Source of the DNA: an uncultured Thiotrichaceae bacterium
GTDB taxonomy: Bacteria > Pseudomonadota > Gammaproteobacteria > Thiotrichales > Thiotrichaceae
Assembly: GCA_937925855.1 (NCBI GenBank)
Contig: CALAMO010000030.1
Location: forward strand, 1-64,000
Reading direction: 5' to 3'
Length of the DNA: 64,000 bases
The number at the start of each line of letters is the position of its first letter. The stretch's first letter is position 1. Position numbers and translations under genes: made by a program. Below, piece after piece: positions 2,124 to 19,119 of this stretch. The notes below the pieces were generated by a model, which saw only the letters and a list, made by a program, of their open reading frames with translations, made no database searches and had not been told where the DNA came from.

Positions 2124-2268
2124 AGCTGAGGCCGCAATGCTAACGCAGTCCCCAGGGCTTGTAAACAACGATAGCAGCATCAGCAGTGTACAGGTCATCT
2201 GCTGGCAGTCGACAAGGTGGATAAACTCCGCTAAGGTGATTTACACATCATTCAATAAAAAAAATAAT

Positions 2269-3327: not shown

Positions 3328-3919
3328 TGGGTTACTATCGGATCGCAGTCAGCCTCTGGTGGCCTGGCTACTCTTGTTGTTGGTGCTACTGTTTGCCGTT
3401 TTTTTTGTCGTGTTGCCCGCAACCGCAAAATCACTGGAGCTGAGTGACCAAATCGAATCGGGTTATAAGCGCCTAAGTACCATGCATCAGATTAGGCAGG
3501 CGACGCCGCAGTTCACTGCCGAGTTTGAGCGGGTTAAGGCTCAGGGGCTTGATAAGCTGTTTTATCCCAAAGGGATGACGGCGGCACAGGTGGGTAAAGA
3601 GTTGCAAAAACAGCTGGCCGGCGTGGTAGCGCGCCACCAAGGTCTGCTGCTGAGTTCTGAGGTGGTGGACGATGCCGCCCCTGATGCTGAGCAGCAGCAG
3701 ACTGGTTTTGAGCGGGTTACGGTGCAGGCTGATTTTCGTGGGAACACAGTGTTGCTGCGTGAGATTTTGCATCAGGCCTACCGCACTCGCCCTTTAATTT
3801 TTGTAGACCGTCTTGATGTTCGGCCACAGCGTAATACGACCGAGCAGGAAATCAAAGGCATGGTCAGGATCTCAACTTATTGGCGTGGAGGGGCAGCAGC
3901 TGATGAAACACTGGATTAG
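3320..3919 (+). CDS. gspM: type II secretion system GspM-like protein
   Basis: 199 residues: a short cytoplasmic N-terminus, one membrane helix at about 14-36 (AWLLLLLVLLFAVFFVVLP), a coiled segment and a periplasmic ferredoxin-like domain. This bitopic layout and its position directly after the GspL-like gene are diagnostic of GspM rather than the sequence itself, which is weakly conserved in the family. The start at 3320 overlaps the end of gspL, and its own end overlaps the gspC-like gene, so the three are translationally coupled. GspM stabilises GspL in the assembly platform. Confidence 0.7.
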   Translation: MSDGLLSDRSQPLVAWLLLLLVLLFAVFFVVLPATAKSLELSDQIESGYKRLSTMHQIRQATPQFTAEFERVKAQGLDKLFYPKGMTAAQVGKELQKQLAGVVARHQGLLLSSEVVDDAAPDAEQQQTGFERVTVQADFRGNTVLLREILHQAYRTRPLIFVDRLDVRPQRNTTEQEIKGMVRISTYWRGGAAADETLD

Positions 3920-4757
3920 TCCACCCGCACAGTTAGTGTTATGGCTTGGTGGTGTGGCCTGCCTGTTGGCTGCCGCCTGGAGTTTATGGCAGCTGCGGCA
4001 GGCGAGCGTTGATGATCATATGGGGCGTAATCAGATACAGATTGCCGTCCCGGATGCTAAAGCATTAAACGTTCCCGGTATTGGTAGTTACCGTTCGTTA
4101 GTGCAGGCTCCACTATTTTGGGAGATGCGTGCCGTTCCAAGGCCGATTGTTGCTCAGCAGCCGGTTGCGGTCAGACCGCCCCCGCCGATTGTGGAGGAAG
4201 TGCCACTCAATCCGCCCGCAGGACGCTTGGTAGGGATTGTTGATTTAGGCAATAAGCGCTATGCCTTGATTAGAAACCAGACGGGCAACCAGTCACTATA
4301 CAAAGGTGATACCTGGGAAGGCTGGAAGGTTGATCGAATTGAAGCAGGCCAGGTGGTATTAACGGCGGGTACGCAGTACGCTGAAATTCCCTTGATCGGT
4401 GATTTCGCCGCTCCACAGCCTAATAAGCAATTATTGGCTGCAAAGCAGCGGCGTCAACAACGCCAGCGCGAAAAACATTTGCGTATACAGCGTCAGCGTC
4501 AGCAAAAGTTGTTGCAGCAACAGGCTCAACAGAGCCGAACAGGTGCGGTACAGCCTGCTTTGGATGATGCTGATAGTCTGGACTATCAACAGGCACAGGC
4601 TGCAAGAGAGAAGCTGGAACAGGCGCTTAATAGTGGGGGGGGTGCTGAGGAGACGGCCCAGGGGCAACCATCAGCGCCGGTCATGTCAATCAAGGAAGCG
4701 CTAGAGGCTCGTCAGCGCCTTATGGCTTCGCGCTGGGGTAATAAAGACGAAGAATAA
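3903..4757 (+). CDS. type II secretion system GspC-like protein
   Basis: About 284 residues from ATG 3903 (MKHWISPPAQ), which overlaps the gspM stop. One membrane helix at about 10-28, a Pro-rich linker (RPPPPIVEE), and an HR-like beta domain (GRLVGIVDLGNKRYALIRN ... YKGDTWEGWKVDRIEAGQVVLT) of the kind GspC and PilP use to contact the secretin. The C-terminal third is a Gln/Arg-rich stretch (QRRQQRQREKHLRIQRQRQQ) with no PDZ or coiled-coil domain of standard GspC, so it is a divergent variant. It sits between gspM and the secretin, the order expected for the protein linking platform to outer-membrane channel. Confidence 0.65.
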   Translation: MKHWISPPAQLVLWLGGVACLLAAAWSLWQLRQASVDDHMGRNQIQIAVPDAKALNVPGIGSYRSLVQAPLFWEMRAVPRPIVAQQPVAVRPPPPIVEEVPLNPPAGRLVGIVDLGNKRYALIRNQTGNQSLYKGDTWEGWKVDRIEAGQVVLTAGTQYAEIPLIGDFAAPQPNKQLLAAKQRRQQRQREKHLRIQRQRQQKLLQQQAQQSRTGAVQPALDDADSLDYQQAQAAREKLEQALNSGGGAEETAQGQPSAPVMSIKEALEARQRLMASRWGNKDEE

Positions 4758-4931
4758 AAAATAAACCAATGTTTGATTCTGTTCGGCGGATGGTGGCTGT
4801 GTCCAATGTAGTAAAACACCGCTTTGTCGGCGATACGGTACTATCCGATGAGCTGCCTTTTATTCGGCTGCTGCAACAGTTAAAATATAAAAAAGATAAT
4901 AATTATAAAAATAATAAATGGGGTTTGCTTT

Positions 4932-7148
4932 GTGACTATCATAAGAACACTGGCAATAATGTTTTCTGCCGTCTTTGTGTTGTCGGCGTGTGCGTCGATT
5001 AAAGACTGGCCGGGCTTCCGTAAAAATGTCGAACAACCTAAAACCATTGGAATGAGTCCTTTCCAGCGTAGTGCTGCCGTTCAATCAACAGGTTATGAGG
5101 CCCTAGGCCTGCGCCGCTCAGCGCTATCTCCACCTGTCATCTCCGAGCATTCTATCCCTCAGGGTTCAGTGCCGCGTGTGGCTACGCAAGCCAGGGGTGT
5201 CCAGCCCGAGCGTGACGTTGAATTAATTCTCGGTGATTCTCAGTATTACCGGAGTGATGTTACTCGGCCTGGCATCATCGGCGGCGGTATGGGTTCTGGT
5301 GTGGCGCTGAATTTTGAGCGTGCCAGTATCCGTGAAGTAGTGAGCGTTGTGCTGGGTGATATTCTCAAACAAACTTATATTGTAGAGCCGGGGGTTGAAG
5401 GCGAAGTCACGATTAATTCGAGTGACCCGATTCCACGCAGCAGTCTGATTCCTACGTTGGAGTCGTTATTACAAACGCAGGGTGCGGTGCTGTATCAGGA
5501 CGATACCGGCAGCTATCGGGTAGCGGCGCGTGCCAATCTCAAAGGGCGAGGCTTTGTCCCATCAACGAGCGAGCTCAAGCCGGGCTATAACATGCAGGTG
5601 GTGCCGCTGCGCTATATTCCCGTCGCGGAAATGCAGAAAATTCTAGAGCCTCTAGCCGCACCGGACGCTTTTGTGCGCGTTGATACCAATCGTAATATTT
5701 TAGTGCTGGCGGGTACCAGTTCGGAACTGGCTAACCTGATGGCGACGATAAGAACGTTTGATGTGGATGTGTTAAGCGGTATGTCTGTTGGGCTTTATAA
5801 AGTCAAAAACGTTGAAGCTCAGATTGTGGCGAAGAACCTCGACGCCTTATTCGGCGAAAGCGGTAATAGTCCAATGGCGGGTATGATAAAAATCATGCCG
5901 ATTGAGCATATGAATAGCATTATGATTATCTCTGCGAACCCGGACTACCTTAAAAAGATGAAGCGCTGGGTTGATCGTTTTGATAAGTCTGGCCCAGTAG
6001 AAGGCCAGCAGCTTTATGTCTATAAGGTGCAGAATGGTGATGCCGAGCATTTAGCCGGCATGCTGTCACAAATTTTCTCAGGTAAGACGGGGAGTAAGAA
6101 GCCAAACGGTACCCTGCCTTCCAGTCTTGCACCCGGTTTAGATGAAGCGACAGTGGGCGAAACGTCACAAGAAGCAAAGGCAAAAACATTGCTGGGTGGC
6201 GCTGCGGGTAGTGAAGGTGGCGTGAGCATTAATCAGAATGCGGAGGTTAAAATTGTTGCAGATAAAGCGAATAACTCGCTGATGATTCTTTCCTCTAAAG
6301 GTGTGTATGAGCAGATCCAGCAGGCGCTGAGGCGAATTGATATTATGCCGATGCAAGTACAGGTTGAAGCCACCATCATGGAAGTAACGCTGAATGAAAG
6401 TATGGAGCATGGTTTGCAATGGTATTTGCGCAACAATCGCGGTACGTTTGGCGGCTTAGGTTTGGGCGGTCTGGATGATGGCACAAAGCCCGGTGGCTTT
6501 TCCTTCACCCTCACAGGGGGTGCAAGTGGGATTACGGGTGTAGTCAATGCCTTAGCGCGTGAATCTGATGTGAAAGTTATCTCTTCACCGTCGGTGCTGG
6601 TTTTGGATAATCAGACGGCTGAAATTCGGGTGGGTGATCAACAACCTATCTATACCAGCTCAAGCCAGTCTGAGTCCGGTCAGGTGTTAATACAGGACGT
6701 GCAGTACAAGGATACAGGGGTCTCGCTCTCAGTGACACCGCATGTGAATGCGAATGGACTGGTGAAAATGGACATTAGTCAGGATATTACTGACGTGGGT
6801 GAGGAAGATACCGTGACCGGTAACCGTAGTTTTCTACAGCGGAAAATTAAAAGTAATATCGCGGTGCAAAGTGGTGAGACCATTGTGTTGGGCGGTCTGA
6901 TTCGTGAGAATAAAAGCCATAGTGATGCCGGGGTGCCCGTGTTGAGAAACCTGCCTATCGTGGGCAATGTTTTCAAAAATAAATCAATTAACGGTAAGCG
7001 CACTGAGCTATTGATCTTAATCACGCCGACTGCGATCAAAGACCAGAGTGACTTGGTAAGAACAGGTACCGAAATGCGTGAACGGATGAAACGTCTGATG
7101 GATGATGATCGTTTTATTCGCCAACTGCGCGGTGAATATGTTGAGTAG
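4932..7148 (+). CDS. gspD: type II secretion system secretin GspD (lipoprotein)
   Basis: 738 residues from a GTG start. A lipobox signal peptide (VFVLSACAS, lipidated Cys about 19) is followed by N0 to N3 periplasmic domains (from about 120), then the secretin barrel with GVNVVNALARESDVKVISSPSVLVLDNQTAEIRVG-like core (here VISSPSVLVLDNQ) and the closing LLILITPTAI motif near 700. It forms the outer-membrane gate for folded exoproteins. A Gly/Ser-rich insert interrupts the region around 390-430, as in many secretins. A 174-base A/T-rich gap separates it from the gspC-like gene, so it may have its own promoter. No gspE, F or G-K lie here. Confidence 0.93.
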   Translation: MTIIRTLAIMFSAVFVLSACASIKDWPGFRKNVEQPKTIGMSPFQRSAAVQSTGYEALGLRRSALSPPVISEHSIPQGSVPRVATQARGVQPERDVELILGDSQYYRSDVTRPGIIGGGMGSGVALNFERASIREVVSVVLGDILKQTYIVEPGVEGEVTINSSDPIPRSSLIPTLESLLQTQGAVLYQDDTGSYRVAARANLKGRGFVPSTSELKPGYNMQVVPLRYIPVAEMQKILEPLAAPDAFVRVDTNRNILVLAGTSSELANLMATIRTFDVDVLSGMSVGLYKVKNVEAQIVAKNLDALFGESGNSPMAGMIKIMPIEHMNSIMIISANPDYLKKMKRWVDRFDKSGPVEGQQLYVYKVQNGDAEHLAGMLSQIFSGKTGSKKPNGTLPSSLAPGLDEATVGETSQEAKAKTLLGGAAGSEGGVSINQNAEVKIVADKANNSLMILSSKGVYEQIQQALRRIDIMPMQVQVEATIMEVTLNESMEHGLQWYLRNNRGTFGGLGLGGLDDGTKPGGFSFTLTGGASGITGVVNALARESDVKVISSPSVLVLDNQTAEIRVGDQQPIYTSSSQSESGQVLIQDVQYKDTGVSLSVTPHVNANGLVKMDISQDITDVGEEDTVTGNRSFLQRKIKSNIAVQSGETIVLGGLIRENKSHSDAGVPVLRNLPIVGNVFKNKSINGKRTELLILITPTAIKDQSDLVRTGTEMRERMKRLMDDDRFIRQLRGEYVE

Positions 7149-7198: not shown

Positions 7199-7615
7199 AT
7201 GGCTTATAGCGATAATAAAAGAAATGGGTTTTGTGGACTTATGTTAGCGCTATGTCTGCCCTTAACGGCCTGTAGCAGTGGAGAAGCCGCAGTAAAAGAA
7301 TTGGCACAATTACGCTGGAATGCACTGATTAATGGTGATTTTGGCGCAGCTTATCAGTATTACACGGATACTTTTAGGGAAGCGGTGCCGCTGCGGCGTT
7401 TCAAAAAGCAAACCACGGGTGTGGGGCTATGGAATAAGGCTGAGGTGGCAACAGTTCAGTGCGATAGTTCCGGCAAGCGTTGTGAGGCTGCGGTTAAGGT
7501 TACCGTCGCATTAAAAATGCGGGGGATGGTAAAACCCGTTGAAACAAGTGACACCGTGCATGAAACATGGGTTAAAGAGGGGGTATTTTCAGACTGGCGG
7601 TATATAAAAAAATGA
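7199..7615 (+). CDS. lipoprotein of unknown function
   Basis: 138 residues with a signal peptide ending in the lipobox LPLTACSSG (Cys about 25). The mature part, ELAQLRWNALINGDFGAAYQYYTDTFRE, looks like the start of an NTF2-like cone fold, with helices followed by strands that end in WRYIKK; this fold assignment is inference. It follows gspD by 50 bases and could share its transcript. Two Cys in the mature part (VQCDSSGKRCEA) could form a disulfide. No enzymatic motif is seen. Confidence 0.75.
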   Translation: MAYSDNKRNGFCGLMLALCLPLTACSSGEAAVKELAQLRWNALINGDFGAAYQYYTDTFREAVPLRRFKKQTTGVGLWNKAEVATVQCDSSGKRCEAAVKVTVALKMRGMVKPVETSDTVHETWVKEGVFSDWRYIKK

Positions 7616-7732: not shown

Positions 7733-9232
7733 GTGTTCAAAAAGAATAAACTCGCTCTCGGTGCGGCCACTGGTTTAGTAGGCCTGGCCGTTATCATGAC
7801 CGGCGCACAGGCTGTGCATGTAAACACCGAAGGCACAGGACAGGTGCTGATTTTTCCTTACTACAATGCGCATCAGGGCTATATAACTAACATTAACCTA
7901 GTGAACTCGACTGATGAAACCAAAGCGATAAAGATTCGTTTCCGCGAAGGTGAAAGCAGTAATGATGTGCTGGACTTCAACATCTATATGTCACCCAACG
8001 ACGTTTGGACTGGCAGTATTGGCGGTATGCAAGATGGTGGTTCGTATATTGGTGCACTGACAACACGCGACCGGACTTGTACACTCCCACAATTGGCATC
8101 TTGTAAAGACGGCAACTGTGCAGTGACTAAAGAGTTCCAGGGGCATGGCTTCTTTGCTGGAGTTGACGCCGCTGACACTCGTGAAGGTTACGTTGAAGTG
8201 GTCGAAATGGGTGTGGTCACCGATAAAACGGTACAAGATGGCGTATTACACCACAATGGTTTGCCGTATGATTGTGGTGCGGTCGAAGACGCTTGGTCTA
8301 ATGGAACCTTTAAACAGGGTGCAGGTGCGGCAGCAACTGGCCTGTCGGCACCTACCGGTGGACTATTTGGCTCTTCTGCTATTATCAGCGTTGAAAAAGG
8401 CTCGGCACTCGCGATTGATCCTGTCGCAATTGACAACTACAGCACAGTGGCGCAGCACTATCTGTCGGATGATGCCAATAACTTCCTGTTGCCTTCCCTA
8501 GCATCGGGTGATGTCAAGCACAGCGCCATTATGGTGAAAGATGCCGCCGGTGAAGTTGAATTGGTCGAAACGACCTGGAAAACAACGGCGGATGCCTGTT
8601 TGGCTGATGGTGATACCTTAACGCCCCAGTGTGGCACGAATCCGTACCCAGTGGCGCACGTACTGTTGGCCTCAAACGTGATGAATGAATACTTCCTAGA
8701 CCCAACTGATGGCTATGACGGTCATACTGATTGGGTTATGACGTTCCCGATGAGGAAACATGGTATTCATAATGACAAGTTAGCCGATGTCTCGCTCGTC
8801 GTGGATGGTATGTTTGACCGCGAAGAAGGTGAGATGACCGCGACTCAAAGTGGTGCGTTTGGCTTCTCACCAGTGCTGCCGGGTAAAGATAAGGAAGAAA
8901 GTCTGCTAACCCGTGAAGTTAATGTGGTGACCTTCAAAAGCACAGACCCTTCCTATGATGACTCAAAGACCGTGCTGAGCAGTCATATTGATAAAAGCTT
9001 ATCGGTCGGTCCTTATGTACATGGTTGGGCACGTTTAGCCTTCCCAGGCTACAGTCTGGCTTCAGGTTGGGAAAGCTCAAAAACCTACGGTAAGAGCGCA
9101 ACAGTGCACGGCGCCGATAGCCATATCTACAAAGGTGTTGCTGTGATCGGTTTTGCGGCGATTGACGGTAATGTGAGTGAAAATGCCAATGCCCGGTTTG
9201 GTGATGTGTTGCCTCATAGGGTTCAGCGTTAA
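7733..9232 (+). CDS. exported protein of unknown function, 499 residues
   Basis: GTG start with a strong AGGAGGC site 8 bases upstream, unusually good for this region. A Sec signal peptide (residues 1-27, cleavage after AQA) precedes VHVNTEGTGQVLIFPYYNAHQGY, a block I associate with a family of uncharacterised secreted proteins in aquatic gammaproteobacteria (FPYY, then NLVNSTDETKAIKIRF and FNIYMSPNDVW). Cysteine pairs (RTCTLPQLASCKDGNC; DACLADGDTLTPQCG) suggest disulfides. No transmembrane segment after the signal. It has its own terminator and lies next to secretion genes; being a type II substrate is an unproven inference. The fold may be beta-sandwich adhesin-like. Confidence 0.82.
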   Translation: MFKKNKLALGAATGLVGLAVIMTGAQAVHVNTEGTGQVLIFPYYNAHQGYITNINLVNSTDETKAIKIRFREGESSNDVLDFNIYMSPNDVWTGSIGGMQDGGSYIGALTTRDRTCTLPQLASCKDGNCAVTKEFQGHGFFAGVDAADTREGYVEVVEMGVVTDKTVQDGVLHHNGLPYDCGAVEDAWSNGTFKQGAGAAATGLSAPTGGLFGSSAIISVEKGSALAIDPVAIDNYSTVAQHYLSDDANNFLLPSLASGDVKHSAIMVKDAAGEVELVETTWKTTADACLADGDTLTPQCGTNPYPVAHVLLASNVMNEYFLDPTDGYDGHTDWVMTFPMRKHGIHNDKLADVSLVVDGMFDREEGEMTATQSGAFGFSPVLPGKDKEESLLTREVNVVTFKSTDPSYDDSKTVLSSHIDKSLSVGPYVHGWARLAFPGYSLASGWESSKTYGKSATVHGADSHIYKGVAVIGFAAIDGNVSENANARFGDVLPHRVQR

Positions 9233-9326: not shown

Positions 9327-10115
9327 ATGAAGCTCGATCATTTCACGAACTTACTCAACTTGGGCTATCAGTTACTGTGCCGGGAAATGCGGGAGCGCTA
9401 TGCGGGTACCTTGCTAGGTGGGTGCTGGTTGTTGCTCAATCCGCTGTTTATGCTGCTGGTGTATAGCTTTATTTTTGGCGAGGTGTTACAGCTGCGCTTT
9501 GGCTCAACGGTGACGGCTAATAGCCACTTTGCTTTTTACCTGTTTGCCGGTCTTCTGGTTTTTAATGGACTGAGTGAAGTGATGACCCGGAGCACGTTGG
9601 TGCTACAGGACAAGCGTGATATGTTGCTGAATACGCCGTTGTCTCCGTGGCTGTTGCCTATTTTGCCCGTTATGGTGTCTGTGCTGTTGGAGTGGCTGGC
9701 GCTGTCTGTGTTATTGCTGTCGATGCTGGCTTGGGGTGAGTTTAAGCTGGTGAGCCTCTTGGGATACCTGCCGTATTTTTTGGTGCGGTTGATGCTGTCG
9801 CTGGCGTTAGCTTTTGTCATTGCCCCCGCTGCTGTTTTCTTTCGCGATTTGCGCCTGCTGATGCCTGCGGTGTTGACGGTTCTGTTATTTATCTCGCCTA
9901 TTCTTTATCCGCCGGAAGTCATACCGGAGCGCTTTTGGGCGCTGTATCATTGGAATTTACTCAGTCATTTGGTTGCGGGGTATCGCGAGGTCTTGCTGGA
10001 AGGTGTGTTTGATGTTTCACGCCTATGGGGCTTGCTGTCAATTTCTAGTTTAGCGCTGTGGTTTGCGCTGTGGGCGTTTAAGCATTTAATGCCAAGGGCT
10101 AGGTATGTGTTGTGA
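9327..10115 (+). CDS. wzm: polysaccharide ABC transporter permease (Wzm type)
   Basis: 262 residues from ATG 9327 (MKLDHFTNLL); the longer track start lies inside the terminator hairpin. Cytoplasmic N-terminus with REMRERYAGTLLG, then six hydrophobic helices (for example WLLLNPLFMLLVYSFIFGEVL and AVLTVLLFISPILYPPEVI), the signature of ABC-2 permeases for O-antigen and capsule export (FISPILYP is a family hallmark). It would form the membrane channel moving undecaprenyl-linked glycan across the inner membrane with the Wzt ATPase encoded immediately downstream, whose GTG start overlaps its stop. Confidence 0.9.
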   Translation: MKLDHFTNLLNLGYQLLCREMRERYAGTLLGGCWLLLNPLFMLLVYSFIFGEVLQLRFGSTVTANSHFAFYLFAGLLVFNGLSEVMTRSTLVLQDKRDMLLNTPLSPWLLPILPVMVSVLLEWLALSVLLLSMLAWGEFKLVSLLGYLPYFLVRLMLSLALAFVIAPAAVFFRDLRLLMPAVLTVLLFISPILYPPEVIPERFWALYHWNLLSHLVAGYREVLLEGVFDVSRLWGLLSISSLALWFALWAFKHLMPRARYVL

Positions 10116-11551
10116 GTGGGGTAGGTGCTGATTGGGTAGGGGTTTCTGCGATGGGGCCAAATAAAGAAAGTGAACCAGCTGGTCGTGCTGCAATGCCTAT
10201 TGCGCTAACGTTACGGCAGGTCAATCTTGTGTATCGGCGCTACCCTCATCCGCGAGATGCACTGCTGGAATGGTTATTAGGTGCGGAGCGCCACGAAAAA
10301 TTCTATGCGCTACGGGATATGACGTTTGAATTGCAAGCGGGCACTGCACTCGGCATTGTGGGGGATAATGGCGCAGGTAAAAGTACTTTGCTGCGCCTGC
10401 TAGCGGGCAACTTGCTTCCTAGTAGCGGAGATTATGCGGTGCGTGGGCGGTGTTCCGCCTTATTAGAGCTGGGTAGCGGTCTGGACCTGGAATGCAGTGG
10501 CATTGAAAATGCCCGTGTTGGCTTGGCACTCCGTGGCCTAACGCCGCATGAAATAAACGAGGTATTACCTGAAGTTTTGGACTTTGCTGAGTTGGGTGAG
10601 TTTGTGGCTCGGCCAGTTAAAAATTACTCTAGTGGTATGGTTGTACGGCTGGTGTTTGCTATTGCGGCAGTGCTGGAGCCTGATGTGCTAATTGTGGATG
10701 AGGCGCTGTCGGTCGGCGACCAGTATTTTCAGAAAAAATCGTTGGATCGTATGCGTGAAATTCTGGCAGGCGGTGCCACACTGGTGTTTTGCTCACATAA
10801 TCTATATCAGCTGCGCGAGCTGTGCCAGCAAGCGGTCTGGCTTGAACAGGGCCAAATTCGTATGATCGGTGAGGCACAGCAGGTGGTCGATGCCTATCAG
10901 GATGCCGTGCGTGCGCGCACTCATCCGGGGCACCCTGTCAGCACAGCATTTGCGCTATGTTCTGTGGCGGCGGGCGACACGGGCACGCCAATCGCGCCGC
11001 AAGTAACCACCAGTCTGGGCGGTGCGCCCATTTTGCGCGCGGTGGAATTAGAGCACGCAGCGGCGTTAACGGAGGATGCTAATCAACGCCCCTGCTTTCT
11101 AACTGGGCAGCGCTTTGGGGTGCGGGTGGAGTTGGATAGCGCAGGTGTGGCTGAGCCGGACATTCATGTGGGCGTGGTGATAAGGCGTAATGATGAGGTG
11201 CAATGTTACGGTATTAGCACCTTGCATGACGGTATCAGCGTGCAAATAGATCAAACTGGGGTGGCAACCGTGCGTTTTATTATTGACAGCCTGCCGTTAT
11301 TATCCGGTGAATATTGCTTGGAGGTTTGGCTGATTGACGCCAGCGGGGTACACGTTTATGACGCGCGTGAACGCTGCTGTTATTTTCGGGTACAGCAGGC
11401 CTCGCAGCAGCAGGGAATTGGTCTAAGCTGGCTAGCGCATCGCTGGGAAACAACCGCACAGACAGCGGGCGCGCCAGCGAATCAGTGTGTGCAGACTAGG
11501 GCGGCTGAGCTCGCCGTCGGAGAAGAGGCTGATGGTGTTGTGGCGACCTGA
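10112..11551 (+). CDS. wzt: polysaccharide ABC transporter ATPase with C-terminal carbohydrate-binding domain (Wzt type)
   Basis: 479 residues, GTG start overlapping wzm by 4 bases. The nucleotide-binding domain has Walker A GDNGAGKST (84-92), the signature YSSGM (about 172), Walker B VLIVDEAL and the H-loop CSHN. After about residue 270 comes a second domain (GAPILRAVELEHAAAL ... YCLEVWLIDASGVHVYD) of the Wzt C-terminal type, an immunoglobulin-like module that recognises the terminal modification of the glycan before export. This implies that chain ends are marked by an enzyme, probably the methyltransferase two genes downstream. The ORF has a non-homologous N-terminal extension of about 30 residues, so a later start is possible (MPIALTLRQVN at 10193). 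Confidence 0.92.
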   Translation: MSGVGADWVGVSAMGPNKESEPAGRAAMPIALTLRQVNLVYRRYPHPRDALLEWLLGAERHEKFYALRDMTFELQAGTALGIVGDNGAGKSTLLRLLAGNLLPSSGDYAVRGRCSALLELGSGLDLECSGIENARVGLALRGLTPHEINEVLPEVLDFAELGEFVARPVKNYSSGMVVRLVFAIAAVLEPDVLIVDEALSVGDQYFQKKSLDRMREILAGGATLVFCSHNLYQLRELCQQAVWLEQGQIRMIGEAQQVVDAYQDAVRARTHPGHPVSTAFALCSVAAGDTGTPIAPQVTTSLGGAPILRAVELEHAAALTEDANQRPCFLTGQRFGVRVELDSAGVAEPDIHVGVVIRRNDEVQCYGISTLHDGISVQIDQTGVATVRFIIDSLPLLSGEYCLEVWLIDASGVHVYDARERCCYFRVQQASQQQGIGLSWLAHRWETTAQTAGAPANQCVQTRAAELAVGEEADGVVAT

Positions 11552-12449
11552 GGCGTTTTCAGTGCGTTATCAGCTGGCGTTCCCGCTGTTGAGTCGGCTC
11601 CCGCCCGCATTAGCTTATCGGGGTGTGGGATGGCAGGCTCGCTATTTCAGTGCGAAGCACGGGCAGCAGCGCGCTGCTATCCAGAATCAGATGTTACGGT
11701 TATTCCCGGGGGCTACGCCTGCGCTGGTCAAGGGCTGGCTAGAGGATTATTTCCGTATGGTTGAGCGTGAGGCTTTGGATACCTGGTTTTTACAGCGGGC
11801 GGCAGCGAATGGTTTGGTCACGCTCAAAGGCTTTGAGCAAGTGGCTGCTTTGCGGCAGTCTGGGCGCAGGGTGTTGCTAACCGGTGGGCATTTTGGCCGT
11901 TTCTGGTTGGCAGGGCCTGCGATGCGTGCTGCGGGTTTCCGCGTGGGCACCATTACTCGTGATGGCGGTGAGAATATTCATAACCTACACCCCGCTGAGT
12001 ATCGCTACCGTCTGTTTAAGCTAAAACAACTGTCAGAAGTACTGGGCGGGCCGTTTCTAGTGGAGGGGGGGGATTTGCGCCCTTTATATCGCGAGCTGGA
12101 TGACGCTCTGATAACGTTGATTTTTGATGTGCCGTATGTGGAAAGACCGGCGGGAAGCGTGACAGTGCCATTTTTTACGGGTAGTATAAAAATACCTGCC
12201 GGGATATTTAAAATTGCAAAAAAAACCAAGGCAGTGGTCGTGCCATTCTATATGCGCGATCTAAAGGGCGAAAAGGTCATAGCGGAGTTTTCTGAGCCGC
12301 TGGAACCTAATAATTATAATGAAGAGGAATTTATGAGCTTACTCGTACTTGAACTGGAGCAGCGTATCAGGGCGCAGCCGGGTTCATGGTGGTTATGGGA
12401 AGCGCTTCCTCTGTTGTGGAGTAATCAGCATGAATCAGACTGCGGCTGA
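11532..12449 (+). CDS. LpxL/HtrB-like acyltransferase-fold protein lacking the catalytic acid
   Basis: About 305 residues from ATG 11532, overlapping wzt by 20 bases. The central region GRRVLLTGGHFGRFWLAGP aligns by eye with the HxxxxD/E motif of lipid A and lysophospholipid acyltransferases, but at the acid position there is Trp (His120, Trp125), where LpxL has Glu. Later parts DDALITLIFDVP and SVTVPFFTGSIKIPAGIFKIAKKTKAVVVPFYMR match the family, as does the closing PGSWWLWEALP-type helix. No N-terminal membrane helix is obvious. It may have lost acyl transfer or use another residue. Its place in the operon suggests a role in loading or modifying the lipid-linked glycan. Confidence 0.72.
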   Translation: MVLWRPEAFSVRYQLAFPLLSRLPPALAYRGVGWQARYFSAKHGQQRAAIQNQMLRLFPGATPALVKGWLEDYFRMVEREALDTWFLQRAAANGLVTLKGFEQVAALRQSGRRVLLTGGHFGRFWLAGPAMRAAGFRVGTITRDGGENIHNLHPAEYRYRLFKLKQLSEVLGGPFLVEGGDLRPLYRELDDALITLIFDVPYVERPAGSVTVPFFTGSIKIPAGIFKIAKKTKAVVVPFYMRDLKGEKVIAEFSEPLEPNNYNEEEFMSLLVLELEQRIRAQPGSWWLWEALPLLWSNQHESDCG

Positions 12450-13452
12450 CGACGCCGAAATTCTGGCAGATCATAACCATTCGCACCATCAAATAGTACG
12501 CCGCATTCCACAGTATGCACAGGTCTTGGAGCTTGGCTGTGCTGGCGGTGAAATGTCCGCGATGATGAAGCGTTACCGGCAGGCCGAGGTGTTTGGCGTC
12601 GAGCAAGACGCACACGCCGCCTGGCAGGCACAGCGCCACTGTAAATATGTATTCACCGAAGATCTGGATGATCCGCACAGTCTGGATGCACTTCAATTTG
12701 AAAAATTTGACGTGATTACGCTGGTTGATGTGCTGGAGCACCTCAAGCACCCCGAAGCCTTGCTTAAACGCCTCAAGCCATTGCTGCTGGATGAGGGCAC
12801 GATTTTATTATCGGTGCCTAATGTTGCCCATGCTTCGGTGCGCTTAGAGCTGCTGACCGGTGAATTTCGCTATGAAGAGGCGGGCATCTTGGACAGCACG
12901 CATCTGAAATTTTTTACGTTGAATAGTTTAAGAATGCTGCTACAAAACAGTGGCTTTGTAATTCATGAAGTGGATTACACACTGCATGATATGCCGGATG
13001 CTGTGATTGCGCGTTATTTGCGACAGGTCGGAGTAGAGGCAACGCCGCGGGTATTAGACTATTTTCATCAGCCAGAAGCAGTCGCCTACCAATTCATCAT
13101 TGCCATGAGTTTGCCAAGGCAGGATGCAAACTGTGACGCTGAACTGCCCAAGTGTAAGCTCGATTTAAGGCCGCCGCCGGAGAGAGCGCACGCACTGAAG
13201 CCCATGGCCGCGTCTTGGCAAACCTGGGGCGATATGTTTACTAACCTACAGGAAAAAGAGCACATTATTCGTGGCCTGGAGGTGAATATGGAGAACTGTC
13301 GGGGTGAGCTTGAACAGGCTCATAATGATTTGCAGCTTAAAAGCGAAGAGTTAGAACGGGTTTATAACACGCTGAGCTGGCGCTTATTGCGTTGGGGCGC
13401 TAATTTATGGCGTGGGCGGGGCAAAGTTCAGGAGCGATTAACACCTAATTGA
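12430..13452 (+). CDS. SAM-dependent methyltransferase with C-terminal coiled coil
   Basis: 340 residues from ATG 12430 (MNQTAADDAE), overlapping the preceding gene by 20 bases. A class I methyltransferase domain covers residues 20-200: motif I VLELGCAGGEMSA, FGVEQD, and FDVITLVDVLEHLKHPE as the UbiG/O-methyltransferase type core. Residues about 265-330 are a coiled coil (LQEKEHIIRGLEVNMENCRGELEQAHNDLQLKSEELERVYNTLS, quoted only in part here) ending in SWRLLRWGANLW, an amphipathic basic tail found at the end of surface-glycan enzymes. This layout recalls WbdD, whose methyltransferase caps O-antigen chains and whose coiled coil sets chain length. Substrate unknown; assignment is by analogy. 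Confidence 0.82.
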   Translation: MNQTAADDAEILADHNHSHHQIVRRIPQYAQVLELGCAGGEMSAMMKRYRQAEVFGVEQDAHAAWQAQRHCKYVFTEDLDDPHSLDALQFEKFDVITLVDVLEHLKHPEALLKRLKPLLLDEGTILLSVPNVAHASVRLELLTGEFRYEEAGILDSTHLKFFTLNSLRMLLQNSGFVIHEVDYTLHDMPDAVIARYLRQVGVEATPRVLDYFHQPEAVAYQFIIAMSLPRQDANCDAELPKCKLDLRPPPERAHALKPMAASWQTWGDMFTNLQEKEHIIRGLEVNMENCRGELEQAHNDLQLKSEELERVYNTLSWRLLRWGANLWRGRGKVQERLTPN

Positions 13453-13494
13453 TAGACTGAAACCATAATTATAAAAAAGATGAGGCCAGTTATC

Positions 13495-14799
13495 ATGGAT
13501 AATCCGGCACCCAGGGTTAGTGTTATTATTCCAGCGTATAATCATGCGCCGTGGATCGCGCAGGCATTAAGTTCAGTGTTTGATCAAACATTGACGGACT
13601 GGGAGCTCATCATTATTGATGATGCTTCAAGCGATGATACCTGGGCGATTATCGAAAAAACTTGTGCCGCTGTGGCGGTGTCCCAACCGGGCAGAATCAG
13701 CCTGATCAGACACGGCGAAAATCAGGGCGCCCCTGCGACCTTGAATGAAGGTCTGGCACTCGCGCGGGGCGAATACATCGCGATTTTAAATTCTGATGAT
13801 GTTTGGCATGCCAAGCGTTTGCAGCACCTGTGTGCGCACAGCCAGCACACGGGCTGCGATTTTGTAGCCAGTGCGATCACCCTATGGGATAAACATTCCC
13901 AGCTGAAAAATCATTCTGAGCCACATTGGCTGGCTTGGTATGAGATGCTTCAGGCTGACTGGCGCCAGCATAAAGATTTCCTGCATACCTTGTTGCTAGG
14001 AAATTTTCTGATTACGACCTCTAATTTCTTTTTCCGGCGCAATTTGTATGAGCGCTGCGGTGGCTTTGCTGAACTGCGTTATTTGCATGACTACGAGTTT
14101 GCCCTGCGGGCGTATCAGTGTGGCGCACGTATGGCGTGCTGCTGGGATGAGGTGCTGCTGCATTATCGGCTGCATGATGATAATACGATTCGGGAACGCC
14201 CACTGGCTGCTCAGCAGGAAAATATGACGCTGCTGCTTGAGCAGCTGACCGAGCTGGCACCCCACTTGAATGCCAAGCGCCTGCACGCGCTACGCTGGCA
14301 GCTGGCAGAGATTTTTCGGTATTACAGCGAAGAGTGGCAGACAGAAATTCATCGGCGTCTGGTCGCGAAAGAGACAGAGCTGTTTCGCTTAGTTGTAGAC
14401 CGTGATGCTTGGGTGGCGGAGCGTGATGAGGTGATTGCTGAACAGCAGCAGATGGCGGTACAGCACACGCATTGGCTGGCGGAGCGCGATGCGCTGCTCG
14501 CCAGTCACGCGGAGACGATTAGCCAGCAGCAGCACTGGATTGGCCAGCGCGATAGCTGGATATCTGCGCGTGATGCCATGATTAGTCAGCGTGATGATTG
14601 GGTGGAGCAGCGTGATCATTGGATTGAGGAGCGCGATGCTTGGGTGCTTGAACGTGATCAGGTGATTAACCATCTCAGGGCAGAGCATGAGCAGTTGTTG
14701 AGCAGTTATGCCTTCCGCTTCGGCAATGCGCTATTGCATCCTCTGCGGTTGCTGGCAAGTCGGCTCAACCTACAAAAATGGAGTCTGCGCCGTGCCTGA
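13495..14799 (+). CDS. family 2 glycosyltransferase with a C-terminal heptad-repeat coiled coil
   Basis: GT-A domain in residues 5-225: VSVIIPAYNHAPWIAQAL, DWELIIIDDASSDDT, NSDDVW as DxD, and GGFAELRYLHDYEFALR as the acceptor-site helix. From about residue 295 to 385 there are about thirteen consecutive 7-residue units of the type xWxxxRD (RDAWVAE, RDHWIEE, RDAWVLE), giving a long coiled coil. A short tail, SSYAFRFGNALLHPLRLLASR, closes the protein. GAGG lies 9 bases before ATG 13495; the track start at 13480 lacks any such site. It likely adds a sugar to the undecaprenyl-linked chain; donor and linkage cannot be read. Confidence 0.87.
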   Translation: MDNPAPRVSVIIPAYNHAPWIAQALSSVFDQTLTDWELIIIDDASSDDTWAIIEKTCAAVAVSQPGRISLIRHGENQGAPATLNEGLALARGEYIAILNSDDVWHAKRLQHLCAHSQHTGCDFVASAITLWDKHSQLKNHSEPHWLAWYEMLQADWRQHKDFLHTLLLGNFLITTSNFFFRRNLYERCGGFAELRYLHDYEFALRAYQCGARMACCWDEVLLHYRLHDDNTIRERPLAAQQENMTLLLEQLTELAPHLNAKRLHALRWQLAEIFRYYSEEWQTEIHRRLVAKETELFRLVVDRDAWVAERDEVIAEQQQMAVQHTHWLAERDALLASHAETISQQQHWIGQRDSWISARDAMISQRDDWVEQRDHWIEERDAWVLERDQVINHLRAEHEQLLSSYAFRFGNALLHPLRLLASRLNLQKWSLRRA

Positions 14800-16894
14800 T
14801 AAGATTGTTGTGCGTGATGGCTATCAGTTGCAAAATTATTTGCAGCCCGTGCTGAGTCAGCAAACTGCTTCTGGCGGCGCTAAGCTGGACAAGGCGACGG
14901 TTCGCGTCATTTCCTTTGATATCTTTGATACCTTGTTGGCGCGGATTGACACGCCGACTCAGGTGCAGCGTGCGGTTTGTCGGAGATTAGCGGCAAAGTT
15001 GCCCACAGCAATCACAGAAGAACAAGTTTGGCAAAGCCGCCAGCGGGTAGAACGTCAGCTGCGAACGGCGACATCGGCTGTTGGGCTGGATTATGAGTGC
15101 CGCTTCAGTGAGTGGGTGCCGCGCTGGCTTCAGGATTTGGGGGTTGCCCCCGATGCGGTGACCAGTCTAGTGAATTTTGTGTTGGCGACTGAAATTCAGT
15201 TGGAACAACAGGCACTCTACGTGAAACCCGATGTGGTCGCCGTATTGCAGTGGCTGCGTACGCAGAATGTGCGGGTGTTTGCCATTTCTGATATGTATCT
15301 GGACGGCGTGTACATACGTGAACTGCTGGCGGAAAAAGGACTGACGGACTGTTTCGAGCAGATTTATGTCTCGGCGGATAGCGGGCTGTGCAAATATTCT
15401 GGGCGTTTATTTGAGCATATCCGCGCGGAACAGGCGCTTGAGTATCCGCAGTGGGTACATATTGGCGATAATCCAGTGTCTGACCGGCGTGTTGCCTGCC
15501 AGCTGGGTATACAAGGTGTCTGGCTGTATGAAAAGCAGGAGCTGCTTCGGCGCGAACAGCAGCAGTTGAGTGCTGAAATGGCAAACAGTGGTGGCCTATG
15601 GCGGGGTCAGCATTTTTTTTCGGTCTTACAGCAGTGCCTGCGCGTACAGGAAAGCAACGGTTCGAACGCCAATAGCTTTTACTTTCGCTACGGGCGCGAT
15701 GTGCTGGGCGGTGCGTTTAGTACGTTTATGCTGGGTTTGCAGGAGCGGTTACAGCACAAACCGGTAGATAAAGTGCTATTCGTGGCTCGCGATGGCTTTT
15801 TATTCCATCAGATGTACCAGCAGCTGGCGGAGCAGGTGCCGAATGCGTATGTGTATTTGTCACGCAAGGTGATTACTGCCGCTGCCACTGCCGATGGACT
15901 GACGCTGGAGCAGGCTCAGGTTGCTTTTTATAATCCGAAGCAGCAGGGCCTGAAGTCGGTTTGTAAGGTTTACGGTTTGCCGGAAGACGAAATCAAGCCG
16001 CTGGCTGCGGTGCACGGGTTTAACGATTTTGCCGCCCCGCTGACTGACTGGCAGGATCAGCGTCTTAAGAATTTTCTGGCGGATGATGCGGTACAGGCGT
16101 GTATTCGTCCCATTGGGGTTGAGCATCGCCGTTTGCTGGAAGCCTATTTGCAGCAGGTTGGTTTTTTTGATGTGGCCTCCGTGTCCTTGGTTGATATCGG
16201 TTGGAATGGCACGGTACAAAAATTTCTTAAGCAGACGTTCGGTGCGCGTACGGATTTCCCACAGGTGCGCGGCTATTATTTTGCGTTTGTGCCGAAAATA
16301 TACAGCGATTTTGGGGCTAATAATTTCTGTGAAGGGATTATTCACGACTCGCGGCGTGACAATGCTTGTGAGCGTATTCCGGCGGAGTTTGAGGAAATTT
16401 TTGAGCAGGGCGCGCGCGCTCAGGACGCAACTACGGTGGCTTATCGACAGGTCGGTGACCGAATTGAACCCGTGCTGAAGGCGGATTATGCGCCGGATCG
16501 TCAGGCTGAGTTGGCCTGTAATGCCATGGTGGCTGAGATGCAGCGTGGTGTGCTGCTGCATTGGCAGTATTTTCAGAAGGTGCAGCAGCTCAGTGGCTAT
16601 CGCAGCGCCGATTTGTTGCCTTATGTGTACGGCCAGTTGGAGCGGGCCATTGTTTATCCCAGCCGCCTTGAGTCGCGGATGTTGACGCGCCTAGTGCATA
16701 CGGAGGATTTTGGTGATGATCATGTGCTGGAGTTGGGGCAGGGGTTTTTAGGCTGGCGTGATTTGCTGCGCCCTGGGCAGCTGTGGGAGCGGTTACGGGG
16801 TGCTGCTTGGCGTTATGCACTGTTCGCTAAAATGCCGACCGGCATGGCTAATTTTGCCTTCCGTATGGTTTATCTGCATGCGGTAAAAAAATGA
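14792..16894 (+). CDS. HAD-superfamily protein of surface polysaccharide clusters (COG5610-like)
   Basis: About 700 residues from GTG 14792, which overlaps the previous stop and has GGAG 8 bases upstream; the ATG at 14708 lies inside the glycosyltransferase. HAD domain about residues 35-260: ISFDIFDTLL with the Asp nucleophile pair, FAISDMYLD as motif II, KYSGRLF as the Lys region, and HIGDNPVSDRRVA as motif IV. A second uncharacterised domain follows (YFRYGRDVLGGAFSTFM, VLFVARDGFLFHQMYQQL, VDIGWNGTVQ, CEGIIHDSRRD). The gene type recurs next to glycosyltransferases in O-antigen loci; its role there is not established. Likely a phosphatase or phosphotransferase acting on sugar intermediates. 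Confidence 0.8.
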   Translation: MPDKIVVRDGYQLQNYLQPVLSQQTASGGAKLDKATVRVISFDIFDTLLARIDTPTQVQRAVCRRLAAKLPTAITEEQVWQSRQRVERQLRTATSAVGLDYECRFSEWVPRWLQDLGVAPDAVTSLVNFVLATEIQLEQQALYVKPDVVAVLQWLRTQNVRVFAISDMYLDGVYIRELLAEKGLTDCFEQIYVSADSGLCKYSGRLFEHIRAEQALEYPQWVHIGDNPVSDRRVACQLGIQGVWLYEKQELLRREQQQLSAEMANSGGLWRGQHFFSVLQQCLRVQESNGSNANSFYFRYGRDVLGGAFSTFMLGLQERLQHKPVDKVLFVARDGFLFHQMYQQLAEQVPNAYVYLSRKVITAAATADGLTLEQAQVAFYNPKQQGLKSVCKVYGLPEDEIKPLAAVHGFNDFAAPLTDWQDQRLKNFLADDAVQACIRPIGVEHRRLLEAYLQQVGFFDVASVSLVDIGWNGTVQKFLKQTFGARTDFPQVRGYYFAFVPKIYSDFGANNFCEGIIHDSRRDNACERIPAEFEEIFEQGARAQDATTVAYRQVGDRIEPVLKADYAPDRQAELACNAMVAEMQRGVLLHWQYFQKVQQLSGYRSADLLPYVYGQLERAIVYPSRLESRMLTRLVHTEDFGDDHVLELGQGFLGWRDLLRPGQLWERLRGAAWRYALFAKMPTGMANFAFRMVYLHAVKK

Positions 16895-17103
16895 AAATAA
16901 AGTCATGTACCTCAGCTAATTTGCTGATCAGCCCGCTGCGGCTCTTTGGCTTTGCACAAGCCTTTCGCTTTTCCTCTGGCCGTGGGCAATGTTTTAGTCC
17001 AGGCATTAAAGGCCTTGTGTGTTGGTATGCAAGACGGTTGCGCCAGCGTCTGCTTGATCGCGCTGCGTTTAAGTGGTGGCGCTGCTGGCTGGAGAAAGTA
17101 TAG
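16891..17103 (+). CDS. small ORF of unknown function between the HAD gene and a glycosyltransferase
   Basis: A 70-residue ORF that fills the 211-base gap exactly: its ATG overlaps the HAD stop (ATGA) and its TAG lies two bases before the ATG of the next gene, with that gene's GGAG inside it. It is basic and aromatic (CWYARRLRQRLLD, FKWWRCWLEKV) and contains LLISPLRLFGF, similar by eye to the LLHPLRLLA tail of the glycosyltransferase upstream. It may be a short real gene or the decayed end of another glycosyltransferase. No function can be assigned. Confidence 0.35.
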   Translation: MKIKSCTSANLLISPLRLFGFAQAFRFSSGRGQCFSPGIKGLVCWYARRLRQRLLDRAAFKWWRCWLEKV

Positions 17104-17105
17104 CC

Positions 17106-18017
17106 ATGGCTCAGGTGCAAATTCTATTGTCAACGTGGAATGGCGAACGTTGGTTGCCGGTGCTGCTTGAATCACTACTGCAACAGACTTATACCGATTG
17201 GACGCTGCTGATACGTGATGATGGTTCTCAGGATCAGACCTGTAAGCTGTTATTGCAATGGCAGGGTTTACATCCCGATAAAGTGGAGTGGCTGGAAATG
17301 AACGGGTTGCATTTGGGCAGTGCGGCCAGCTTCAGTCGGTTGGTGGAGTTGAGTCGTGCACCATTGTTAATGTTCTGTGATCAGGATGATGTCTGGTTTC
17401 CTGACAAAATTAAGCGACAGCTAGCGGCAATGCAGCGTTTGTCAGTACAAAATGACGTGGCTACTCCTTTGCTGGTACATACTGACTTGGCGCTGATTAA
17501 TGCGCGGGATGAGCCAATCACCGATTCCTTCTGGCAGCAGCGTGGGTTTAATGTCCGGCAGCCCAAACAGGACTATTTGTTAACCAACACGGTGACGGGC
17601 TGTGCGGCTTTATTTAACCGAGCTGCTGCCACCAAGGCGTTCCCGCTACCGCCGGGGGTAGCGCAGCATGATCGCTGGTTGGCTCTAGTCTGCGCGTGGT
17701 TTGGGGCGGTTGAGTCTCTGACGCAGGCGTCCATGCAATATCGGCAGCATACCCAAAATGCGATCGGTGCCGGTCAGGCGCATTACGCGCATGTGACCGC
17801 GGTTTCGATTCCGGGTCGACTGGCGGCATGGAGTCAGCAGGCTGAAATATTTTTAAGCTGTTTCGGGAATGAACTGAGTCGAGTGGACTACAGGCTGATC
17901 GAAGCACTGGCGGAGCTGCGTCATTTAAAAGGCTGGCAACGGCGCAGGCATATTGTACAACACCGCCTGTTTAAACAAGGGGTTTTGGCAAACCTAGCCT
18001 TATTGTGGTTTGCCTGA
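17106..18017 (+). CDS. family 2 glycosyltransferase (rhamnosyltransferase-like)
   Basis: 303 residues from ATG 17106 with GGAG about 10 bases upstream. GT-A fold with VQILLSTWNGERWLPVLLES, TDWTLLIRDDGSQDQT, LMFCDQDDVWFPDK (the DxD site) and PPGVAQHDRWLALVCAWFG as the acceptor helix. This pattern (STWNGE, IRDDGS, CDQDDVW) is that of alpha-rhamnosyl and related transferases in rhamnan and O-antigen synthesis; donor assignment is by resemblance. It is cytoplasmic with no membrane segment, part of the wzm-wzt operon and followed 16 bases later by another glycosyltransferase. Confidence 0.88.
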   Translation: MAQVQILLSTWNGERWLPVLLESLLQQTYTDWTLLIRDDGSQDQTCKLLLQWQGLHPDKVEWLEMNGLHLGSAASFSRLVELSRAPLLMFCDQDDVWFPDKIKRQLAAMQRLSVQNDVATPLLVHTDLALINARDEPITDSFWQQRGFNVRQPKQDYLLTNTVTGCAALFNRAAATKAFPLPPGVAQHDRWLALVCAWFGAVESLTQASMQYRQHTQNAIGAGQAHYAHVTAVSIPGRLAAWSQQAEIFLSCFGNELSRVDYRLIEALAELRHLKGWQRRRHIVQHRLFKQGVLANLALLWFA

Positions 18018-18033
18018 AAAGGAAGCGTGTATT

Positions 18034-19119
18034 ATGAAAACAATAATAAATCGCCCGGACGTTGCGGTCGTTATCTTAACCCGCAATGCTGGTCAACTGT
18101 GGGCGGCCTGCCTGGCAGGCGTCAGGCAGCAGACCGTTCAGGCCGGACGCTATCTCGTCATTGATTCCCATTCTGAGGATCGAACTGCCGAGCAGGCCGT
18201 CGCCGCTGGAATGGATGTTTATGTCATCGACCCGCAGCAGTTTAATCATGGCGGTACTCGCCAGCTGGCGGTGGAGCTGTGTCCCGATGCGACCTTCATC
18301 GTCTATCTGACGCAGGACGCTATTTTAGAGCAGCCAGATTCACTTGAGCAGCTGCTAGCGCATTTTGCCGATGAGCGTTTAGCGATGGCCTATGGGCGTC
18401 ATATCCCACACAAACAGGCCAGTTTGATCGAGTCGCATGCCCGCGCTTTTACCTATCCGGCACAGTCGGCGCAGCGCACGCGCAGTGATTTTAAAGCTTT
18501 GGGCTTTCGAGCGGCCTTTTCCTCGGATGTTTATGCCTGCTATCGGGTGGCAGCATTGCGCAGTGTTGGTGGTTTTCCGCAGAATGTGATTGTGAGTGAG
18601 GACAGTTATGTCAGCGCCTGCCTGTTGATGGCGGGTTGGACGACCGTATATTCTGCGCAGAGCCGGGTTCGTCATTCGCATCATTATTCGCTGAGTCAGG
18701 TATTTCAGCGCTATTTTGATGTCGGGGTGTTTCATGCCAGCGAGGCTGCCTTACTTCAGGGTATCGGCAAGCCAGATAAAGAAGCCGGTGCCTACGTGCG
18801 CTCGCTAATTGCCTTTCTCAATGTGCGGCGCAAGCGCTTGTTGCCTTATGCCGCGCTGTTAACGCTGATTAAGCTGCTTGGGTTTCGTTTGGGTAAAAAG
18901 CATGCTCAGCTGCCAGCCGGACTGTGTCGCCTGATTAGCGTACAAAAAGCCTATTGGAAGACAGCGGCGGCGGCGGAGTGTAAGACCGGTTGGTTAGTGC
19001 CCGCCAGCCATGCGGTTAAGCAAACGGTGGCGCTACCTCACTTGCAAAACCGTTTGCTGTATAACCGCATGCAGCCTCGCAGTGAGGCTGCGGTGACGGA
19101 TATTATTAGCACGGGTTGA
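18034..19119 (+). CDS. family 2 glycosyltransferase (rhamnosyltransferase-like)
   Basis: 361 residues from ATG 18034, preceded by AAGGAAG. Motifs VAVVILTRNAGQLWAACLAG, YLVIDSHSEDRTAEQA and VYVIDPQQFNHGGTRQLAVE, where the FNHGGTR block is typical of RfbN/WsaF-type rhamnosyltransferases. FIVYLTQDAILEQPDS carries the metal-binding Asp in a TQDA form. The C-terminal third has a possible short membrane-associated helix (LPYAALLTLIKLLGF) and a basic tail. Last gene of the polysaccharide operon; no terminator with a T-run is obvious before the rplM promoter, though T6 follows its stop. Confidence 0.87.
   Translation: MKTIINRPDVAVVILTRNAGQLWAACLAGVRQQTVQAGRYLVIDSHSEDRTAEQAVAAGMDVYVIDPQQFNHGGTRQLAVELCPDATFIVYLTQDAILEQPDSLEQLLAHFADERLAMAYGRHIPHKQASLIESHARAFTYPAQSAQRTRSDFKALGFRAAFSSDVYACYRVAALRSVGGFPQNVIVSEDSYVSACLLMAGWTTVYSAQSRVRHSHHYSLSQVFQRYFDVGVFHASEAALLQGIGKPDKEAGAYVRSLIAFLNVRRKRLLPYAALLTLIKLLGFRLGKKHAQLPAGLCRLISVQKAYWKTAAAAECKTGWLVPASHAVKQTVALPHLQNRLLYNRMQPRSEAAVTDIISTG

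What the first reader, a model, noticed from the sequence alone, without database searches (positions are those of the whole stretch)
10112..13452. Wzt carbohydrate-binding domain paired with a methyltransferase bearing a coiled-coil tail: a possible chain-capping ruler
Wzt's C-terminal domain reads a terminal mark on the glycan. In E. coli O9a that mark is set by WbdD, a methyltransferase/kinase whose coiled coil measures chain length. The methyltransferase here has a coiled coil of about 65 residues and an amphipathic tail (SWRLLRWGANLW). No kinase domain is seen. It suggests capping by methylation alone.
Basis: partly seen in the sequence, partly recalled or inferred. Interest (0 to 1): 0.55.

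Follow-up and report, generated by a model that had tools for sequence, protein, structure and literature searches.

The report
Methyl-cap enzyme for an exported sugar chain
A filamentous sulfur-bacterium-type genome carries a conserved gene set that appears to build a surface sugar chain, stop it with a methyl cap and export it through a pump that reads the cap; this is probably a new example of a known strategy, and its helical spacers change in length between species only in whole seven-residue steps, which makes the measuring-rod idea testable.

Summary
Wzt (10112-11551) has a C-terminal cap-reading domain. The methyltransferase (real start ATG 12430, end 13452) has a ~52-residue coiled coil (13210-13365) and an amphipathic tail; no kinase is present.

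Ruler: the coil is 27, 34, 55 or (fusion) 118 residues between fixed anchors, always the same heptad phase, while the neighbouring linker drifts freely. The adjacent glycosyltransferase carries a longer heptad-repeat stretch (68-173 residues, at least 15 changes, all multiples of 7) and is a rival ruler.

The cluster is fixed between type II secretion genes and rplM-rpsI across genera, unlike a variable O-antigen locus. Methyl-only capping is known (E. coli O8 WbdD, A. aeolicus), so this is a new member of a known kind. Function is inferred, not shown.

The parts
9327..10115 (+). wzm: ABC-2 permease of the glycan exporter
   Evidence: Pfam ABC2_membrane 2.8e-15; conserved next to wzt
10112..11551 (+). 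wzt: ATPase with C-terminal cap-reading domain (Wzt_C at 11039-11431)
   Evidence: only PDB relatives of the C-terminal domain are Aquifex aeolicus Wzt
11538..12449 (+). LpxL/PatA-like acyltransferase-fold protein with the HX4D/E motif changed to HX4W (HFGRFW)
   Evidence: Lip_A_acyltrans 2.3e-12; H118 and W123 invariant in 20 aligned orthologues; His aligns with His and Trp with Asp of PatA
12430..13452 (+). Methyltransferase with coiled coil and amphipathic tail, the proposed chain terminator
12499..12969 (+). SAM-dependent methyltransferase domain (residues 24-180), glycine-rich loop VLELGCAGGEMS
   Evidence: Pfam Methyltransf_23; nearest solved chain 3cc8, 8.4e-30
13210..13365 (+). Coiled coil (residues 261-312); anchor-to-anchor length 55 here, 27 or 34 in other species
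13366..13413 (+). Amphipathic basic tail NTLSWRLLRWGANLWR (family consensus VYATRSWxxLRRxAxxWR)
13480..14799 (+). GT2 glycosyltransferase with C-terminal heptad-repeat region and tail
   Evidence: Glycos_transf_2 7.7e-35
14365..14703 (+). Heptad-repeat stretch (RDxWIxE units) of the GT2; 21-bp tandem repeat at 14587-14646
   Evidence: 26/26 orthologues have anchor distance 5 mod 7; tandem repeat
14704..14763 (+). GT2 tail YAFRFGNALLHPLRLLASRL
   Evidence: hydrophobic moment 0.492, top 1.4% of segments; conserved SRAFRLGxxLLxPLR in relatives
14708..16894 (+). Predicted ribofuranosyltransferase: HAD phosphatase plus phosphoribosyltransferase part (ORF as listed; orthologue lengths suggest a start near 14786-14798)
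   Evidence: PDB 7shg 'Ribofuranosyl transferase' 2.2e-22, Bcs3 1.9e-13
17073..18017 (+). GT2 glycosyltransferase
   Evidence: Glycos_transf_2 1.4e-19
18010..19119 (+). GT2-type glycosyltransferase
   Evidence: Glyco_trans_2_3 4.6e-13
7733..9232 (+). Predicted secreted protein of unknown family that travels with the exporter
   Evidence: no Pfam match; kept in the cluster across genera and near wzm/wzt in G410, G388 and G077

Best explanation
The window holds an ABC-transporter-dependent glycan assembly and export cluster. Glycosyltransferases, including a predicted ribofuranosyltransferase, build a chain on a lipid carrier at the inner membrane. The methyltransferase (12430-13452), held at the membrane by its amphipathic tail and lifted off it by its coiled coil, puts a methyl group on the non-reducing end once the chain reaches it. 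That stops growth and makes the mark that the Wzt C-terminal domain must bind before Wzm/Wzt exports the chain. Shown here: domains, coil, tail, order, conservation, heptad phase, fusion, nearest solved relatives. Inferred: the cap chemistry, that methylation stops growth, and that coil length sets chain length. My confidence is about 0.65 for 'methyl-only terminator read by Wzt' and about 0.35 for 'this coil sets chain length'.
For: Wzt domain profile finds only the Aquifex aeolicus Wzt domains in the PDB, 6.2e-6, including the crystallised cap-reading domain (methyl-cap recognition in PMC9445017). In L089, a different family, the orthologous methyltransferase (49% identity) is fused through a coil and an SRGWR...KPLR tail to two GT2 domains, in one cluster with homologous wzm, wzt and LpxL-like genes. 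Anchor distances 27, 34, 55 and 118 all equal 6 mod 7, while the linker just before takes every value mod 7. G035 has no Wzt_C in its genome and its methyltransferase lacks coil and tail and has lost the LD.TH motif. In other families the closest methyltransferase relatives lie beside or near Wzt_C in about 6 of 15 genomes, and coil-plus-SWR-tail enzymes, often fused to glycosyltransferases, are common in Wzt_C loci.
Against: No enzyme activity, glycan structure or chain length is known for any relative. L079 lacks coil end and tail yet keeps the LpxL-like gene, GT2 and ribofuranosyltransferase. The coil is short compared with WbdD. The Aquifex pocket residue Trp362 is not kept at the aligned position. 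The structure prediction failed (mean pLDDT 40).
Confidence: 0.6

Rival explanations
1. The methyltransferase is the cap enzyme, but the ruler is the neighbouring GT2 protein (13480-14799), whose heptad stretch is longer and more variable; the methyltransferase coil is only a short tether or an assembly helix.
For: GT2 heptad stretch 68-173 residues, 12 length classes, 26/26 in one phase, at least 15 changes, about 10-25 nm if helical, near the ~20 nm reported for WbdD (PMC5082667). Terminators with a GT catalytic domain plus coil are known in Klebsiella O12 and O4 (PMC11231755).
Against: The GT2 stretch does not pass the a/d coiled-coil test (P = 0.45), and its heptad phase can come from 21-bp repeat slippage. 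In the L089 fusion the coil belongs to the methyltransferase.
Confidence: 0.3
2. Coil and tail are a general membrane-docking and complex-forming module for polysaccharide enzymes and measure nothing; heptad phase is kept because coil pairing needs it.
For: Similar tails occur on methyltransferases, a sulfotransferase-like protein, a deacetylase-glycosyltransferase and glycosyltransferases in Wzt_C loci of other families; methyltransferase and GT2 in the same cluster both carry one; any coiled coil resists non-heptad indels.
Against: Loss of coil and tail together with Wzt in G035 and the terminator-coil-polymerase fusion fit the chain-termination scheme specifically.
Confidence: 0.3
3. The methyltransferase decorates internal sugars or acts on a small molecule, and is not a terminator.
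For: Class I methyltransferase domains of this family act on many substrates; nearest solved chain 3cc8 has no assigned function.
Against: Fixed place beside a cap-reading Wzt, fusion to GT2 domains, membrane tail.
Confidence: 0.15

Closest known systems
WbdD of E. coli O8 / Klebsiella O5 (methyltransferase-only terminator)
   Same: Methyltransferase-only capping, coiled coil, membrane-associated C-terminal helix, paired with a Wzt that has a cap-reading domain (PMC3482155, PMC11231755)
   Different: No significant sequence relation to the WbdD chains in the PDB (E = 0.39; those are O9a, the O8 protein was not available); shorter coil; different glycosyltransferases; LpxL-like gene between
Aquifex aeolicus WzmWzt and its 3-O-methyl cap
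   Same: The Wzt domain here finds only this protein in the PDB; invariant residues V100, E148 and W150 of the alignment fall at three of the four positions of its methyl pocket (Leu300, Thr346, Ala348; PMC9445017)
   Different: Trp362, the lid of that pocket, is Ser/Ala here; the capped sugar is probably different; E-value is moderate
Klebsiella O7 ORF6 (methyltransferase-kinase-coil-GT2-GT2)
   Same: The L089 fusion has the order methyltransferase-coil-GT2-GT2; the window cluster, like O7, has a separate ribofuranosyltransferase (PMC11231755)
   Different: No kinase or CBM-like insert; in the window the methyltransferase is a separate protein; L089 has no ribofuranosyltransferase in the 20 kb seen; sequence not compared, record not available
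LpxL / PatA acyltransferases
   Same: Lip_A_acyltrans family match
   Different: Catalytic HX4D/E is HX4W; profile hit to PatA weak (0.0036)

Membership tests
Coiled-coil chain terminators of ABC-dependent glycan assembly | Cap-forming catalytic domain N-terminal to a coiled coil | tested here: met
   Methyltransf_23 domain then coil at residues 261-312, P = 0.002
Coiled-coil chain terminators of ABC-dependent glycan assembly | C-terminal membrane-associated amphipathic helix | tested here: met
   Sequence criterion only: moment 0.592, net charge +3; absent in L079 and L085
Coiled-coil chain terminators of ABC-dependent glycan assembly | Partner Wzt with a cap-reading domain in the same cluster | tested here: met
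   Wzt_C at 11039-11431; relatives
Coiled-coil chain terminators of ABC-dependent glycan assembly | Coil length sets glycan chain length | not testable with these tools
   Natural length series found (27/34/55/118), no glycan data
Coiled-coil chain terminators of ABC-dependent glycan assembly | Catalytic transfer of a cap to the chain end | not testable with these tools
   No assay or glycan structure
WbdD | Sequence homology to WbdD | tested here: not met
   Profile of 27 orthologues hits WbdD chains (4azw, 4uw0) at E 0.39-0.44 only, below many unrelated methyltransferases
WbdD (O9a type) | Kinase domain after the methyltransferase | tested here: not met
   No kinase family in the Pfam and NCBIfam scans
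Wzt with C-terminal cap-reading domain | ABC_tran plus Wzt_C | tested here: met
Active LpxL-type acyltransferase | HX4D/E catalytic motif | tested here: not met
   HX4W invariant in 20 aligned sequences
Ribofuranosyltransferase (HAD phosphatase plus phosphoribosyltransferase) | Homology over both parts to the solved enzyme | tested here: met
   7shg aligned over residues 65-548, 2.2e-22; active-site residues not checked one by one

The most novel reading that the evidence does not exclude
A terminator machine with two separate heptad-stepped spacers, one on the methyltransferase and one on a glycosyltransferase, that together set chain length, with a catalytically changed LpxL-like protein acting as a binding subunit (for example for the lipid carrier) between exporter and terminator.
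Probability: 0.15. Interest if true: 0.65.

Novelty: new member of a known kind. Interest (0 to 1): 0.42.

Why it matters
It gives a natural series: related species with the same enzymes but coils of 27, 34 or 55 residues, and neighbouring stretches of 68 to 173 residues. If chain length follows one of them, the ruler idea from E. coli would be tested by evolution instead of by engineering, and it would be clear which of two coils measures. The cluster is also conserved across genera at one place, unlike serotype loci.

Tried and rejected
WbdD homology was tested and rejected. A correlation between methyltransferase coil and GT2 stretch lengths was looked for by eye; none is obvious. A single-sequence search of the Wzt domain found nothing; the profile did. 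A loose tail regex also hits chance proteins (27 hits against 11 in shuffles), so only the hits with a clear S.SWR.T.PLR-like tail were taken as meaningful, and their count is by eye. A Thiothrix sheath/holdfast literature search gave no listed paper on such a cluster (titles and abstracts only).

Full report
What is there. The window lies on contig 30 of a 3.57-Mb draft genome; its nearest named relatives are uncultured Thiotrichaceae. The gene order is gspL, gspM, gspC, gspD (2137-7148; gspD by family model, the other three inferred from weak matches and order), a small gene (7199-7615), a predicted secreted 499-residue protein (7733-9232), wzm, wzt, an LpxL-like gene, the methyltransferase, a GT2, a predicted ribofuranosyltransferase and two more GT2-type genes, then rplM and rpsI (ribosomal names from sequence and established knowledge).

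Conservation. In 63 genomes of the order, close methyltransferase orthologues occur in four genera. Neighbourhoods fetched for 26 of them mostly show the same order between the same flanks. Exceptions: some contigs end inside the cluster, G052 and G051 have other genes in place of the last two glycosyltransferases and the ribosomal flank in the stretch seen, and G035 has only the methyltransferase. A locus with fixed place and content is unlike a serotype locus. Most g8 genomes have one or more further Wzt_C exporters elsewhere, usually with stronger family scores, while the window genome has only this one.

The methyltransferase. The domain is Methyltransf_23; nearest solved chain is 3cc8, of unassigned function. 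WbdD appears only at E = 0.39 with a 27-sequence profile. The coil passes a shuffle test (P = 0.002) and the tail is strongly amphipathic. Between the fixed anchors LKP and VYATRSW the distance is 55 in ten sequences including the window, 34 in five and 27 in ten; two lack the second anchor. All are 6 mod 7, and so is the 118 of the L089 fusion. The linker just before it (AYQFI to LKP) has eleven lengths covering every value mod 7. By parsimony there are 2 changes in the family, plus one to the fusion, against at least 12 in the linker. Three changes give about 1 in 343 by chance, so this is suggestive, and it is what any coiled coil would require.

The GT2. Its stretch of RDxWIxE units varies from 68 to 173 residues in 12 classes, all 5 mod 7 in 26 of 26, with at least 15 changes. 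A 21-bp tandem repeat in the DNA means repeat slippage alone could make whole-heptad steps. It fails the simple a/d test, so I call it a heptad-repeat stretch, not a proven coil.

Fusion. In G410, from another family of the class, locus L089 has wzm, wzt, the LpxL-like gene with HLGRFW, relatives of the 7199 and 7733 genes, a 300-residue gene in the place of the rotamase-like one, and a 999-residue protein: methyltransferase (49% identity), coil, SRGWR...TKPLR, GT2, GT2. This is the layout that the Klebsiella work describes for terminator-polymerase proteins (PMC11231755), here without room for a kinase.

Cap reading. A profile of 18 Wzt C-terminal domains finds in the PDB, up to E = 10, only Aquifex aeolicus Wzt (6o14, 8dky, 7k2t, 8dku), the system in which binding of a 3-O-methyl cap was solved (PMC9445017). 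Reading the alignment by hand, Leu300, Thr346 and Ala348 of that pocket correspond to invariant V100, E148 and W150 (alignment numbering), and Trp362 to a Ser/Ala; the pocket place is under strong constraint but its make-up differs, so the capped sugar may differ.

Loss. G035, 97% complete, has no Wzt_C match; its methyltransferase has no coil or tail and a changed LD.TH motif. This links the methyltransferase to the exporter. Against a strict ruler, G037 (L079) lacks the tail and most of the coil in a cluster that otherwise looks kept, though its contig starts at the LpxL-like gene.

Wider setting. In 43 loci at or near Wzt_C genes of other families, about 17 hold proteins with a coil followed by an S.SWR.T.PLR-like tail; by Pfam these are mainly methyltransferases of several families, a sulfotransferase-like protein, PIG-L/GT2 proteins and glycosyltransferases, several with glycosyltransferase domains after the tail. 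The module is general and fits the published terminator scheme.

Rest of the genome. WecA-like (two), O-antigen-ligase-like (two over the cut-off, one below) and RmlC genes are present elsewhere, so lipid-linked glycan assembly and ligation are possible, but nothing ties them to this cluster.

Verdict. Most likely a methyl-only chain terminator read by Wzt, a new member of a known kind. Whether its coil, the GT2 stretch or neither measures the chain is open.

Noticed in passing
window 11538-12449: LpxL/PatA-like protein with HX4D/E changed to HX4W in every complete orthologue aligned, and in the distant L089 cluster; looks like a conserved, catalytically changed acyltransferase of unknown role.
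   Followed up: partly
window 7733-9232 and 7199-7615: A predicted secreted protein without Pfam match and a small companion travel with wzm/wzt in this family and in L089; relatives also lie near wzm/wzt in L112 and L113 and near gspD-type genes in L108. Possibly a type II secretion substrate linked to the glycan.
   Followed up: partly
L066 5500-6363 and its counterparts: Most relatives have a rotamase-like (PPIC) gene between the secreted protein and wzm; it is missing in the window and in L065.
   Followed up: partly
window 14708-16894: Predicted ribofuranosyltransferase, suggesting that the glycan contains ribofuranose made from PRPP.
   Followed up: partly
window 2137-7148: Type II secretion genes (gspL, M, C, D) sit directly upstream of the glycan cluster and keep that place across genera.
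   Followed up: no
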